Shown: positions 4,393 through 10,081 of the stretch, piece after piece
Layout: each line of letters starts with the position of its first letter
Numbering within the stretch: the first letter of the stretch is position 1
Assembly: GCA_902782235.1 (NCBI GenBank)
Contig: CACZML010000003.1
Location: 1-42,064 of the forward strand
Direction of reading: 5' to 3'
DNA from: Oscillospiraceae bacterium
GTDB taxonomy: Bacteria; Bacillota; Clostridia; Saccharofermentanales; Saccharofermentanaceae
DNA: 42,064 bases
Notes under the pieces: generated by a model
The model's database searches: none
What the model saw: only the letters and a program-made list of their open reading frames with translations
Told to the model about the DNA's origin: nothing
Translations under genes and position numbers: made by a program

Positions 4393-4980
4393 TTACCCGA
4401 TTATAGCTCTTCCGCACTCATCGAATTTCAAAGTCGCATTCTCTGCATGCATCATTACAGGACGGTATCTGTAAGGTTTAAATTCCCCTTCGGGTGTGGA
4501 AATAACGGTTCCGAATACAGGTTCGATGCTCTTGAGCTTACCGCTCTCATAGAGCTCGACACCCAGTTTCGTTTTTATAGTTCCTGCTGAAGTTTTTACG
4601 ATCAACTCATCACACGGCCAAAGGGTTATGGCTCTTATCTTGCCATTAGGATAAAAGAATATGCATTGAGGTCTTATGTGATATATTTCCCCTTCAATAT
4701 CGAAGTCATAATAAGGCGCATTCTCAGCCTCTTCTGAGATGCTCCAGTAGGCACTTATCTGACCATATAAGGGAAATATCCTTTTCGCATTGCCGTCCTC
4801 GTAAAAAGTAATTAATTCTGTTTGGAACTCTCCTGCAGGAAAAGATAAAACAACAGGTTCTTCAAGATACACACTCTTAACAGAACCTGATTCAAAATAA
4901 GATACCGCACAGCGGTGCTTCTTTCTGTAATCAGAAGCCCCGCTGCACGGAAGGAGATTACCGTATTTTGTTTTAACCAT
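4393..4980 (-). CDS. MORN-like (YwqK-type) repeat protein coupled to NifB-like gene
   Basis: A 195-aa protein without signal peptide or membrane segment. It holds degenerate repeats of aromatic-x-(D/N/S)-G-(N/K)-x-(K/R) type: YFESGSVKSVYL, FYEDGNAKRIFPL, FFYPNGKIRAITLW and LYESGKLKSIEPV, resembling MORN_2 repeats of YwqK-like proteins. The start at 4980 (MVKTKYGNLL) is chosen because it lies inside the last codons of the NifB-like gene (8-base overlap), implying coupled translation; the open frame upstream is only the shadow of that gene. Its place in the operon suggests a role linked to the nitrogenase-like system, but none is known to me. Confidence 0.6.
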   Translation of the reverse strand: MVKTKYGNLLPCSGASDYRKKHRCAVSYFESGSVKSVYLEEPVVLSFPAGEFQTELITFYEDGNAKRIFPLYGQISAYWSISEEAENAPYYDFDIEGEIYHIRPQCIFFYPNGKIRAITLWPCDELIVKTSAGTIKTKLGVELYESGKLKSIEPVFGTVISTPEGEFKPYRYRPVMMHAENATLKFDECGRAIIG

Positions 4981-6247
4981 GGCTGAACGTATCAGCTGCC
5001 CTTTCTTTCCTGTCTTTGTATAACTCCGAGTGAAGGTCCTTACCCTTTCCGGGGATTCCAAGACTGTCTGCACGGCAGTGCTGGCAGTGACGGAAGACCT
5101 CAAGATATTTGCCTGCTTCCTGACGGACTTCTTCAAGATCCGCACAGGTCGGGGCAGGAATATCAGCCATCTCATTCTGAGGGATCAGCGGAATAATATT
5201 CAGGATCGAAGCACCAAGCCCTGCTGTTACTTTTGCAACTTCAGGAATGTGCTTATCATTGATACCGGGAACGAGAACGCTGTTGATCTTAACTACGATT
5301 CCCAGTTCAGCTGCACGGCGGATGCCTTCAAGCTGTTTTTCTATAAGTAACTTCGCACCTTCCACACCTTCATGTTTCTGTCCCTTCTCATCGATAACAA
5401 AGTTATTGATCTTTGCTTCGATCTCAGGATCTACCGCATTAACAGTTACGGTAAGAGTCTCTATGCCTATCTTTGCGATCTCATCAACCATATCGGGAAG
5501 CCTGAAACCGTTTGTTGACAGACAGCAAATAAGCTCGGGAAATGACTCTTTAACAAGACGGAATGCCTTGAGCGCCTGATCGTTCGCGAGTGTGTCTCCA
5601 GGCCCGGCTATACCCACTACAGTAAGTGCGGGACATAATTCTTTTGCTCTTCTGACTGTCTCAACAGCTTCTTCAGGCTTTAACACCAATGAACTGACAC
5701 CGGGCTTTATCTCTGATTTGTTAAAAGCCCTTGTGCAGAACTTGCAGCTGATGTTGCATACGGGACTTACGGGAAGATGCACTCTTCCGGCCGTCACATT
5801 CGAATGGCCTCCCAGGCATGGATGTCTTTTCTGCAGATTCTCGAAAGAACCTTTTCTAAGCGTCTCATCGTATGCCTTTCTCCTTTTTTCTTCTTTATAT
5901 TTCGGTGCCAGGATGCTGACGCGGGAGTTAACGACTCTTTCAAGTACATAAGCAACTTCGCGTTCAACATCAACACTTTGTATAAGCTTCTCATCAAGAG
6001 CCTGCTTTGCATGAAGGCCAGACTTTGCCGAAAAGACGATATTGCAGTCGTCTATCGCGCTTGCAAGGCGCTCGATAAGGGAATCGTCATGCTGGAGGCT
6101 TACTCCATAGCTGTCGATCCTTCTCGTATCAACAAGTTCATATTTCTTAGACTCGGTATCTATCTCATAGATATCGAATCTGTCGGCTACACCGAAGTGT
6201 CTGTTGATATTAACGCCGTCTCCTGTCGCAAATGCTGCTCTGATCAT
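4973..6247 (-). CDS. NifB-like radical SAM protein with N-terminal NifX-type domain
   Basis: Predicted maturase building an Fe-S-carbide precursor cluster (NifB-co type). Residues 1 to about 110 form a NifX/NafY-type cofactor-binding domain (GDGVNINRHFGVADRFDIYE). Then comes a NifB-type segment with RHPC at 141-144 and the radical SAM triad C164-x3-C168-x2-C171 (PVCNISCKFC). The C-terminal HCQHCRADSLGIPGKG matches the conserved NifB tail. In many NifB proteins a NifX domain, when present, is C-terminal, so this order is notable. It is fourth in the D-K-H-B operon, 10 bases after the NifH-like gene. Its candidate counterpart is marB of methylthio-alkane reductase systems. Confidence 0.88.
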   Translation of the reverse strand: MIRAAFATGDGVNINRHFGVADRFDIYEIDTESKKYELVDTRRIDSYGVSLQHDDSLIERLASAIDDCNIVFSAKSGLHAKQALDEKLIQSVDVEREVAYVLERVVNSRVSILAPKYKEEKRRKAYDETLRKGSFENLQKRHPCLGGHSNVTAGRVHLPVSPVCNISCKFCTRAFNKSEIKPGVSSLVLKPEEAVETVRRAKELCPALTVVGIAGPGDTLANDQALKAFRLVKESFPELICCLSTNGFRLPDMVDEIAKIGIETLTVTVNAVDPEIEAKINNFVIDEKGQKHEGVEGAKLLIEKQLEGIRRAAELGIVVKINSVLVPGINDKHIPEVAKVTAGLGASILNIIPLIPQNEMADIPAPTCADLEEVRQEAGKYLEVFRHCQHCRADSLGIPGKGKDLHSELYKDRKERAADTFSHG

Positions 6248-6257
6248 TGTTTATTCC

Positions 6258-7100
6258 TTAAATGTGATAGTTGTCTTTAATACTGTCCATGAGACCGAAT
6301 TCGATAAGGATCTCTTCGAGTCTCTCCTGTGTCATAGGCTTCGGGATAACGAACTGTGTGTTATTCTCGATAGCCAATGCGAGATTTCTGTATTCCTGTG
6401 CCTGAGGATGGTTGGGATCGTGATCGATAACCGTCTTCTTCTTGATCTCAGCCCTTTGAACTTCATTGTCACGCGGTACGAAGTAGATGAGCTGGCTGCC
6501 GAGTTCTTTTGCGAATTCTCTTAAGAGCTCATTCTCTCTGTCTACCTTACGGCTGTTGCAGATGATTCCTCCGAGTCTTACTCCGCCCTTTAACGCGTAT
6601 TTCTGAATACCCTTACAGATATTGTTTGCCGCATAGAGCGCCATCATTTCGCCTGATGCGACAATGTAGATCTCTTTAGCCTTTCCTTCTCTGATCGGCA
6701 TCGCGAATCCGCCGCATACAACGTCTCCCAAAACGTCATAGAAAACATAATCAAGATCGTCTGTGTATGCACCAAGATCTTCAAGCATTCCGATGGATGT
6801 AATGATTCCTCTTCCTGCACATCCGACACCCGGCTCAGGTCCGCCTGATTCAACGCATCTGATGCCTCCGAATCCGACTCTCTCGATCTGGCTCAAGTCA
6901 TCGACTTCGCCTTCTTCTCTGAGCGTGTCGAGAACGGTTCTCTGTGCAAGGCCATTAAGAAGAAGTCTTGTGGAATCTGCCTTAGGGTCGCATCCAACGA
7001 CCATGATCTTCTTGCCGAGTTCGGCAAGGCCTGCCGTAAGGTTCTGTGTTGTGGTGGATTTTCCGATTCCGCCTTTTCCGTAAATTGCAATCTGTCTCAT
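6258..7100 (-). CDS. NifH-like Fe protein (nitrogenase-type reductase)
   Basis: Predicted homodimeric ATPase that passes low-potential electrons to the D/K-like component. All key features are visible: P-loop GKGGIGKS (8-15), switch-I region VVGCDPKADSTR, [4Fe-4S] ligands C94 (GVGCAGRG) and C129 (LGDVVCGGFAMP), and R97 at the position used for ADP-ribosylation in NifH. Length (280 aa) is typical of NifH. It lies 23 bases after the K-like gene. High similarity to true NifH means this gene alone does not separate nitrogenase from nitrogenase-like enzymes; the D/K partners do. Candidate marH. Confidence 0.92.
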   Translation of the reverse strand: MRQIAIYGKGGIGKSTTTQNLTAGLAELGKKIMVVGCDPKADSTRLLLNGLAQRTVLDTLREEGEVDDLSQIERVGFGGIRCVESGGPEPGVGCAGRGIITSIGMLEDLGAYTDDLDYVFYDVLGDVVCGGFAMPIREGKAKEIYIVASGEMMALYAANNICKGIQKYALKGGVRLGGIICNSRKVDRENELLREFAKELGSQLIYFVPRDNEVQRAEIKKKTVIDHDPNHPQAQEYRNLALAIENNTQFVIPKPMTQERLEEILIEFGLMDSIKDNYHI

Positions 7101-7123
7101 TTCTGGTAATCTCTTTTCTCTGT

Positions 7124-9956: not shown

Positions 9957-9975
9957 TTTTTGTAATCTCCTTTGT

Positions 9976-10004
9976 CAATCACCTATCAACCAAGTAGGTG
10001 ATTG
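9976..10004 (-). promoter_or_regulatory. perfect 10-bp inverted repeat in the 5' leader of the D-like gene
   Basis: CAATCACCTA and TAGGTGATTG flank a 9-base loop just upstream of the ribosome site, at about +4 to +32 of the predicted transcript. It could be a repressor operator or an RNA hairpin. Its core (9981-9999) resembles sequences over the -35 boxes of O-acetylhomoserine sulfhydrylase 1 and cysE, which favours a shared DNA operator. Confidence 0.55.
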
Positions 10005-10014
10005 CATGAAAAGA

Positions 10015-10081
10015 ATGATACACTTACGGGAATTTAAGTGTTAATACGCAAAAACAATAGTTGGTTATAAGTAAAACTTAT
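10015..10081 (-). promoter_or_regulatory. promoter and LysR box of the nitrogenase-like operon
   Basis: Minus-strand -35 TTAACA (10044-10039), 18-bp spacer, -10 TATCAT (10020-10015), giving a start near 10008. A perfect LysR-type dyad ATAAG-N5-CTTAT (T-N11-A) lies at 10067-10081, centred 66 bp upstream, the classic LysR recognition position. It overlaps the stop codon of the adjacent LysR gene. Activation by LysR1 or LysR2 is inferred. Confidence 0.6.

What the first reader, a model, noticed from the sequence alone, without database searches (positions are those of the whole stretch)
4973..10081. Nitrogenase-like D-K-H-B operon in a sulfur context: candidate methylthio-alkane reductase in a Clostridia member
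Seen: NifH-like, D-like and K-like proteins with all six P-cluster-type cysteines at NifDK spacing, plus a NifB-like maturase, and no NifE, NifN, NifV or AnfG. Known: MAR (marBHDK, R. rubrum) cleaves C-S bonds of methylthio-alkanes, and O-acetylhomoserine sulfhydrylase turns the methanethiol into methionine. Inferred: two such sulfhydrylases, an SDR, two LysR regulators and a sulfonate-type importer adjoin, so the operon is a MAR or related C-S lyase, possibly releasing ethylene or methane. It could also be an undescribed group with another reduced substrate.
Basis: partly seen in the sequence, partly recalled or inferred. Interest (0 to 1): 0.95.

Follow-up and report, generated by a model that had tools for sequence, protein, structure and literature searches.

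The report
Nitrogenase-like sulfur-scavenging enzyme in rumen bacteria
Four neighbouring genes in a gut bacterium (likely from the rumen) encode a nitrogenase look-alike that likely does not fix nitrogen but is predicted to cut carbon-sulfur bonds so that the cell can make methionine, which would mean that its nifH-type gene is a misleading sign of nitrogen fixation in gut surveys.

Summary
In detail: a D-K-H-B operon (9956-4973, minus strand) with six P-cluster-type cysteines and a NifB-like maturase, in a sulfur neighbourhood. D and K match the solved R. rubrum methylthio-alkane reductase (MAR) far better than any solved nitrogenase (428 against 126 bits; 414 against 62). But it is not the MAR orthologue. 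True MarD orthologues (74-81% identical to R. rubrum) exist in other Bacillota, and heliobacteria, Pelosinus and C. drakei carry both types. A DK tree puts the window in a separate clade "X" (support 100), sister to MAR plus two relatives (98). X keeps MAR's cluster ligands and Arg-His hallmark, but MAR's His194 is Ile or Val in 27 of 29; nitrogenase's Gln191, His195 and His442 are absent. Of 50 X loci, 39 have sulfhydrylase, cysteine synthase or MetIQ-type genes nearby. S-box riboswitches lie directly upstream of D in two Clostridium species. Best reading: an ATP-driven C-S-cleaving reductase of the methionine regulon, substrate unknown, probably a thioether. In print a member of this clade (Heliophilum NflDK1, matched by gene order) is predicted to be a nitrogenase. 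X operons supply the only strong NifH in a Butyrivibrio and an Agathobacter genome, so some gut "nifH" records are probably not nitrogenase.

The parts
8457..9956 (-). D (catalytic alpha) subunit of the nitrogenase-like reductase, 499 aa
   Evidence: PF00148; best solved relative MarD 9fmg_A, 428 bits, next non-MAR 126; C255, H414 and R413 aligned with MarD Cys270, His429, Arg428
7124..8455 (-). K (beta) subunit, 443 aa
   Evidence: PF00148; MarK 9d9u_C 414 bits, next 62; C12, C36, C96
6258..7100 (-). H (ATP-driven reductase, Fe-protein), NifH-type, 280 aa
   Evidence: TIGR01287 451.7 bits, cut-off 394.35; 1cp2 NifH 464 bits against MarH 283; C94, C129, GKGGIGKST
4973..6247 (-). B (NifB-like radical SAM maturase with N-terminal NifX-type domain), 424 aa
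   Evidence: TIGR01290 315.7 bits, under its cut-off of 343.65; PF02579 + PF04055; solved NifB 301 bits
10078..10974 (-). LysR-family regulator next to D (candidate regulator)
   Evidence: PF00126/PF03466; this LysR cluster in 5 of 50 X loci, the window included
11019..11825 (-). short-chain dehydrogenase/reductase
   Evidence: PF00106; TIGR03971 290 bits, just under cut-off 300; this cluster in 4 of 50 X loci, the window included
11844..13142 (-). O-acetylhomoserine sulfhydrylase-type PLP enzyme (thiol capture, inferred)
   Evidence: TIGR01326 407 bits, under its cut-off of 495; this cluster in 32 of 50 X loci
13443..14357 (-). second LysR-family regulator
   Evidence: same cluster as the first
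16776..19602 (-). Ssu/NMT1-type ABC importer: ATPase 16776-17600, permease 17576-18565, substrate-binding protein 18562-19602
   Evidence: PF00005, PF00528, PF09084; TIGR01728 SsuA_fam 94.7 bits, under its cut-off of 163.5
20242..21624 (+). second sulfhydrylase-type PLP enzyme, other strand
   Evidence: PF01053; TIGR01326 441 bits, under cut-off 495

Best explanation
The operon encodes the subunits D, K and H and the NifB-like maturase B of a nitrogenase-like enzyme in the sister clade of methylthio-alkane reductase (MAR), and it likely breaks a carbon-sulfur bond of a small organic sulfur compound so that the released thiol would feed methionine or cysteine synthesis. Inferred steps: H hydrolyses ATP and passes electrons to a P-cluster held by six cysteines of D and K; these reach an [Fe8S9C]-type cluster built by B and anchored by Cys255 and His414 of D; the substrate, most likely a thioether, is reduced at that cluster; the thiol (methanethiol, or sulfide) is captured by the neighbouring O-acetylhomoserine sulfhydrylase. 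The residues and the gene neighbourhood are shown; the clusters, the substrate and the product are not.
For: (1) D and K match R. rubrum MAR at 428 and 414 bits; the next solved relatives outside MAR score 126 and 62. (2) The three P-cluster cysteines of D and MAR's Cys73, Trp195, Phe199, Cys270, His375, Arg428 and His429 are kept in 29 of 29 X sequences, Gln74 in 27 of 29; the three of K in 24 of 24; roles from PMC12552129, sections 7 and 8 read. (3) DK tree, 65 taxa: X 100, X + (MAR+Y) 98. (4) 39 of 50 X loci, and 24 of 27 with at least 7 kb on both sides, have a sulfhydrylase-, CysK-, MetI- or MetQ-type gene within 10 kb; sulfhydrylase 32 of 50, MetI or MetQ 24 of 50. (5) Of 43 X relatives scanned with Rfam, 6 hold S-box SAM riboswitches and 2 hold T-boxes. 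Placed by gene calls: S-box directly before D in L070 and L058, before an ATPase-MetI-MetQ-D-K-sulfhydrylase run in L057; T-box 560-570 bases before D in L048 and L049; in L060, L073 and L181 the S-boxes stand before other genes. (6) The window's genome has no PF01077 sulfite/nitrite reductase match, so the enzyme would have to deliver a thiol or sulfide rather than sulfite (inference).
Against: No substrate or activity is shown. A member of the clade, Heliophilum NflDK1 (matched by gene order), is predicted in print to be the nitrogenase of a diazotroph and was placed with Endomicrobium proavitum NfaDK, whose host incorporates 15N2 (PMC9147875, section 10, part 1 read). PMC4995403 says that besides the gut strains whose NifD lacks the cofactor histidine, the other Clostridiales in that nifH clade keep it. 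The window has no riboswitch, and 35 of the 43 X relatives scanned showed neither S-box nor T-box. 11 of 50 X loci showed none of the four sulfur gene types (several are short). The genome also encodes MetE, so methanethiol is not its only route to methionine. The importers next to X vary (Met-, Ssu-, Opp- and amino-acid-type), which gives no single substrate, and MetIQ and sulfhydrylase genes may share only regulation with the enzyme.
Confidence: 0.62

Rival explanations
1. It works as an ordinary MAR on the same volatile thioethers (dimethyl sulfide, 2-methylthioethanol), the clade difference being only lineage divergence.
For: Nearly the whole set of MAR residues around the cluster is kept; 108 positions are conserved alike in both clades; sulfhydrylase next door.
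Against: Both types coexist in one genome, e.g. C. drakei L181 with MAR D at 964 and X D at 11804; His194 is lost in 29 of 29 and 25 positions differ consistently, among them A75, S196, I427, L435 and A436; many X loci carry importers, which volatile substrates should not need; MtnA, of the salvage route that supplies 2-methylthioethanol (route recalled), was not found in the genome.
Confidence: 0.18
2. It is a group IV-A nitrogenase (Nfa) that fixes N2 without NifEN, as proposed for Endomicrobium proavitum and Heliophilum fasciatum.
For: Heliophilum NflDK1 lies directly before the sole nflH in print; our X-type D, K and then H in L142 have that order; 15N2 incorporation is reported for E. proavitum (PMC9147875); window H passes the nitrogenase iron protein cut-off.
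Against: Nitrogenase's Val70, Gln191, His195 and His442 align with Cys/Gln, Trp, Phe and Gly in the window; in MAR the same replacements go with no N2 reduction (PMC12552129); no NifE/NifN pair seen; sulfur neighbourhood and S-box control in some relatives; Paenibacillus nif-like genes did not respond to ammonium or oxygen and did not complement nif mutants (PMC4246453, abstract and passages; not shown here to be X-type). The E. proavitum sequence itself could not be placed.
Confidence: 0.12
3. It reduces a sulfonate, like isethionate reductase (Isr), fed by the Ssu-type importer at 16776-19602.
For: Ssu-type importer in the window; SsuA/NMT1-like genes in 12 of 50 X loci (8 in the window's own cluster, 4 in a second cluster that matched no NCBIfam model at 1e-15 and is so named by eye); Isr is a nitrogenase-like HDK enzyme with an SsuCAB importer (PMC11423573).
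Against: IsrD keeps only one of three P-cluster cysteines and lacks the cofactor cysteine, and IsrB is not NifB-like (PMC11423573, section 12 read); the window keeps all of these. No sulfite/nitrite reductase domain found in the genome.
Confidence: 0.05

Closest known systems
Methylthio-alkane reductase MarBHDK of R. rubrum (PDB 9FMG, 9D9U)
   Same: D and K best solved match; P-cluster cysteines; Cys270/His429 cluster ligands; Arg428; Cys73, Gln74, Trp195, Phe199, His375; NifB-like maturase; link to methionine synthesis
   Different: 42.6% identity of D; separate clade; His194 to Ile; 25 consistent substitutions; NifH-type H; order D-K-H-B; Met- or Ssu-type importers nearby; S-box control in some relatives
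Group IV-A 'Nfa' / heliobacterial NflDK1
   Same: The X-type DK of Heliophilum appears to be the published NflDK1 (inferred from the D-K-H order); no NifEN
   Different: Published prediction is N2 fixation; nitrogenase catalytic residues are not present in the X clade; E. proavitum NfaD not placed here
Isethionate reductase IsrBHDK of R. capsulatus
   Same: Nitrogenase-like HDK plus a radical SAM protein in a sulfur locus; Ssu-type importer
   Different: Isr lacks two of three P-cluster cysteines of D and the cofactor cysteine; its B is not NifB-like
Mo-nitrogenase NifHDK
   Same: H is NifH-type; P-cluster cysteines; cofactor Cys275 equivalent
   Different: No NifEN pair; Gln191, His195, His442 not conserved; only 1 of 7 NifD gave a near-full-length BLAST hit, at 26% identity

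Membership tests
Methylthio-alkane reductase (MAR) | D and K fall inside the clade of R. rubrum MAR | tested here: not met
   Separate clade X, support 100; MAR 98; MAR+Y 100; the first tree, with B. viridis MarD too, also separates X (0.978)
Methylthio-alkane reductase (MAR) | [Fe8S9C] ligands Cys270 and His429 with Arg428 in Loop I | tested here: met
   C255, H414, R413 in the window; 29 of 29 X sequences
Methylthio-alkane reductase (MAR) | His194-Trp195 and His375 around belt sulfide S2B | tested here: inconclusive
   Trp195 and His375 kept 29 of 29; His194 kept 0 of 29 (MAR 10 of 10)
Methylthio-alkane reductase (MAR) | Six P-cluster cysteines in D and K | tested here: met
   D C53, C78, C145; K C12, C36, C96
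Methylthio-alkane reductase (MAR) | Reduces methylthio-alkanes to methanethiol and hydrocarbons | not testable with these tools
   needs purified enzyme or growth assay
Nitrogenase (groups I-III) | NifD Val70, Gln191, His195, His442 | tested here: not met
   Cys60/Gln61, Trp182, Phe186, Gly432
Nitrogenase (groups I-III) | NifEN cofactor scaffold encoded | tested here: not met
   No other full-length PF00148 pair in the genome; MAG 92% complete
Group IV-A / Nfa | Groups with Heliophilum NflDK1 | tested here: met
   Heliophilum X-type D (L142 3692-5173) is 60% identical to the window and 86% to the H. mobile X-type D of the tree; its D-K-H order equals NflD1-K1-H in PMC9147875. That it is NflDK1 is inferred from gene order; its D was thinned out of the trees
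Group IV-A / Nfa | Groups with E. proavitum NfaDK | not tested
   Sequence not obtained; not named among the best 120 listed or 82
Group IV-A / Nfa | Fixes N2 | not testable with these tools
   needs 15N2 assay
Isethionate reductase (Isr) | D lacks two P-cluster cysteines and the cofactor cysteine; B not NifB-like | tested here: not met
   All cysteines present; B hits TIGR01290 and solved NifB
BchLNB / CfbCD | D/K match these models above their cut-offs | tested here: not met
   D: DPOR_BchB 75 of 490 bits needed, methan_mark_13 48 of 268; K: 84 of 490, 39 of 268

The most novel reading that the evidence does not exclude
The nitrogenase-like group that carries heliobacterial NflDK1 (group IV-A in print) is not a nitrogenase family at all but a second, methionine-regulated class of C-S reductases using nitrogenase-type clusters, imported substrates and, in gut Clostridia, a borrowed NifH; the gut and rumen 'cluster III nifH' and many rumen 'nitrogenase' annotations then mark organosulfur salvage, with possible hydrocarbon release by bacteria, not N2 fixation.
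Probability: 0.45. Interest if true: 0.88.

Novelty: new variant of a known kind. Interest (0 to 1): 0.74.

Why it matters
If right, it removes a group from the list of candidate N2 fixers and would help explain a reported mismatch: 23% of 501 cultured rumen genomes were scored as nitrogenase-positive by NifH, while in situ N2 fixation is reported as negligible (PMC6776011, passages read). A human-gut survey (PMC4995403, passages read) counted Lachnospira/Butyrivibrio-type cluster III nifH as candidate N2 fixers and noted that the NifD of some of these strains lacks the cofactor histidine. It would also add a second, widespread C-S-cleaving user of nitrogenase-type clusters with a different pocket, a natural comparison for how the protein decides between N2 and C-S chemistry, and possibly a bacterial source of methane, ethane or ethylene in guts.

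Tried and rejected
MAR orthology: rejected by the DK tree and by coexistence with true MarD. Isr: rejected on cysteines and on the type of B. Bch/Cfb: far under the model cut-offs. H type as a classifier: rejected; C. drakei's MAR-linked H is also NifH-type (81% to the window) while many X loci have an Nfl-type H (48-52%). Methionine synthase gap as proof of methanethiol use: rejected; MetE is present; the MetH activation domain matched, mostly in part, in 100 of 113 family genomes but not in the window's own. T-box specificity (Met or Cys) could not be settled by eye. A promoter/terminator scan gave no clear excess over shuffles (23 against a mean of 28.7; 16 against 11.6, sd 4.1), so no transcription unit is claimed from it. 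E. proavitum NfaD was sought with the last protein search and not seen in the 120 rows listed.

Limits of the counts. Gene calls in relatives came from a simple longest-ORF script, so neighbour counts are lower bounds (K is missed next to D in some loci, e.g. L030). Neighbour names stand for BLAST clusters of which one member each was scanned or, for H, B, K and the sulfhydrylase, the window's own protein; MetI and MetQ representatives score under the curated cut-offs. 446 nitrogenase-like ORFs of at least 330 aa gave 341 distinct; with 12 MarD/X proteins and R. rubrum MarK added, thinning at 82% identity left 196, of which 185 of 380-620 aa went into the first tree. DK tree: 64 pairs plus R. 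rubrum; 4 D without a paired K and the database D proteins other than R. rubrum's (no K at hand) were left out. 50 X loci were kept from 121 X-type ORFs after thinning by shared 5-mers. Genome contigs returned 80 of 133 relatives. The 43 Rfam-scanned loci were not thinned.
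Full report
WHAT IS THERE. The window lies in a 2.55-Mb, 210-contig MAG (92% complete). D proteins 100% identical to the window's come from MAGs titled Ruminococcaceae RUG12201 and RUG12602 and Clostridiales Firm_14, a 99% one from a goat omasum MAG (RGIG2731), and a 94% one from a Saccharofermentans MAG; a rumen origin is inferred from these. On the minus strand D, K, H and B follow each other with gaps of 1, 23 and 10 bases. 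Upstream, in the same direction, stand LysR, SDR, O-acetylhomoserine sulfhydrylase and a second LysR; further up an Ssu/NMT1-type importer, and on the other strand a second sulfhydrylase. In 115 genomes of the window's family, 54 match the D profile; 26 of them at 660 bits or more, the other full-length ones at 463 or less, so the X type is patchy.

WHAT IT RESEMBLES. Against the PDB sequences, D scores 428 bits to R. rubrum MarD (9fmg_A) and 126 to the best nitrogenase; K scores 414 to MarK and 62 to the next. H is the reverse: 464 bits to C. pasteurianum NifH (1cp2), 283 to MarH. B scores 301 to solved NifB and carries an extra N-terminal NifX-type domain. B proteins near X-type D come in two sizes, 296-341 aa and 419-452 aa (12 and 11 of 23); 22 of 50 loci have a separate NifX-type gene.

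ACTIVE SITE. From PMC12552129 (sections 4, 6-9, 12 and 26 read), MAR holds a P-cluster by MarD Cys66, Cys91, Cys158 and MarK Cys32, Cys56, Cys121, and an [Fe8S9C] cluster by MarD Cys270 and His429, with Arg428 a proposed hallmark; Trp195, His194 and His375 line belt sulfide S2B; Mar did not reduce N2. Mapped on the alignment, the window has all six P-cluster cysteines, C255, H414, R413, C60, Q61, W182, F186 and H360, but I181 where MAR has His194. Over 29 X sequences the D residues named are invariant except Gln74 (27 of 29), and His194 is Ile 20, Val 7, Leu 1, Gly 1; in 10 MAR sequences it is His 10 of 10. 25 positions differ consistently (at least 90% in each clade), some beside the named residues in sequence (A75L, S196T, I427A, L435W, A436G), while 108 are conserved alike. 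At nitrogenase's Val70, Gln191, His195 and His442 the window has Cys/Gln, Trp, Phe and Gly.

WHERE IT BELONGS. A search with R. rubrum MarD gave orthologues in Bacillota: Heliobacterium mobile 81%, Heliophilum 81%, Pelosinus propionicus 81%, Thermoanaerobacterium 77%, C. puniceum 74%. Heliophilum, H. mobile and Pelosinus also hold a window-type D (59-60% to the window). The window's D is 41-45% identical to 10 MAR D, 50-80% to 28 of the 28 other X D, and 26% to the one of 7 NifD with a near-full-length hit. In C. drakei (L181) a MAR D and an X D lie 9 kb apart, and in C. algoriphilum (L070) X, a further type Z and a MAR D share a contig. A concatenated DK tree (65 taxa, LG+F+R5, 1000 ultrafast bootstraps) gives X 100, MAR 98, MAR+Y 100, X + (MAR+Y) 98, Z outside with 100, nitrogenases far outside. 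So the operon works like MAR by its parts, but is not a member of MAR.

NEIGHBOURHOOD. Among 50 thinned X loci: sulfhydrylase 32, MetI- or MetQ-type 24, SsuA/NMT1-like 12, CysK 14, H 26, B 23; 39 have at least one of sulfhydrylase, CysK, MetI or MetQ, and 24 of the 27 loci with 7 kb or more on both sides. In several Lachnospiraceae (L032, L038, L042, L045) and in close relatives of the window (L030, L046) MetI-MetQ genes follow the D...H-B run. The MetQ and MetI representatives are under the cut-offs of the curated models (MetQ 146 of 374 and 141 of 228.9; MetI 163 of 212), so the importer may carry something other than methionine. As a control, six nitrogenase-type H-D-K loci fetched for the tree (L149, L169, L185; and L160, L175, L179, which group with nitrogenases) showed none of the four sulfur gene types, in stretches of 12-19 kb. 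Rfam: of 43 X relatives scanned, S-box SAM riboswitches in 6 (L057, L058, L060, L070, L073, L181) and T-boxes in 2 (L048, L049). The S-box ends 240 bases before D in L070 and 167 in L058; in L057 it stands before an ATPase-MetI-MetQ-D-K-sulfhydrylase run; in L060, L073 and L181 the S-boxes precede other genes. The window has no Rfam hit. SAM-responsive control of an N2-fixing enzyme would make little sense; of a methionine-salvage enzyme it does (inference).

THE GENOME. No sulfite/nitrite reductase domain match, no MtnA match, one MetQ-type protein, on contig C52 with MetI-type, MetN-type ATPase, CysK and a Cys/Met PLP enzyme on the same contig, MetE present. These fit a cell that lives on reduced or organic sulfur, but the MAG is incomplete.

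LINK TO THE LITERATURE. Heliophilum NflDK1 was predicted to be that organism's nitrogenase because it grouped with E. proavitum NfaDK (PMC9147875, section 10 part 1 read, figure legends as passages). Its genes directly precede the only nflH; our X-type D, K and H of Heliophilum have that order, so NflDK1 is inferred to be X-type. The same paper calls NflDK5 a MAR. In Butyrivibrio MB2005 and Agathobacter ruminis the X operon supplies the only PF00148 pair (2 matches each) and the only strong NifH (422 and 426 bits; the next 46 and 51). PMC4995403 (passages read) lists Butyrivibrio and Lachnospira NifH as the match of human-gut cluster III nifH, and PMC6776011 (passages read) counts NifH in 23% of 501 rumen genomes while citing negligible fixation. 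That these sequences are X-operon H is an inference that I did not test sequence by sequence; against it, PMC4995403 says that NifD of other Clostridiales in its clade keeps the histidine. In the listings and passages (open-access library, capped lists) I saw no paper that ties this clade in particular to sulfur; PMC9147875 says in general that groups IV-VI include sulfur-metabolism roles. North et al. 2020, the MAR discovery paper, was in none of the listings and was not looked up by id; it is known here from citing papers.

CONFIDENCE. That the enzyme is not a nitrogenase and not MAR proper: high on residues and tree. That it cleaves C-S bonds: moderate. Which substrate: open.

Noticed in passing
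G000 contig C86 (L194 2-2236 and 7025-7677): Pieces of other nitrogenase-component-1-like proteins directly upstream of HypF-, HypD- and HypE-like genes (Hyp names and the last piece by eye); the window's H was the only strong NifH match in the genome. Function unknown.
   Followed up: partly
L182, L183, L187: Relatives in the same family carry two different DK pairs in one locus, with H and NifX- and CysK-type genes.
   Followed up: partly
L190 (Treponema saccharophilum plasmid pTS2): Two nitrogenase-like DK pairs flank an ABC importer on a plasmid.
   Followed up: no
clade X H genes: Two kinds of H serve the same D/K clade: a NifH-type one (window, Lachnospiraceae, C. beijerinckii) and an Nfl-type one about 50% identical (heliobacteria, Pelosinus, Paenibacillus, Chlorohelix), suggesting a reductase swap.
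   Followed up: partly
window 13399-13183: A promoter-like site followed by a terminator-like stem with a T-run before the sulfhydrylase start (13142) would allow a leader with attenuation; the scans show no clear excess over shuffles.
   Followed up: no
clades Z, U, V: Other unassigned nitrogenase-like clades also sit, in several loci, beside sulfhydrylase, CysK and Ssu- or amino-acid-type importers, so the sulfur link may hold for much of group IV.
   Followed up: partly
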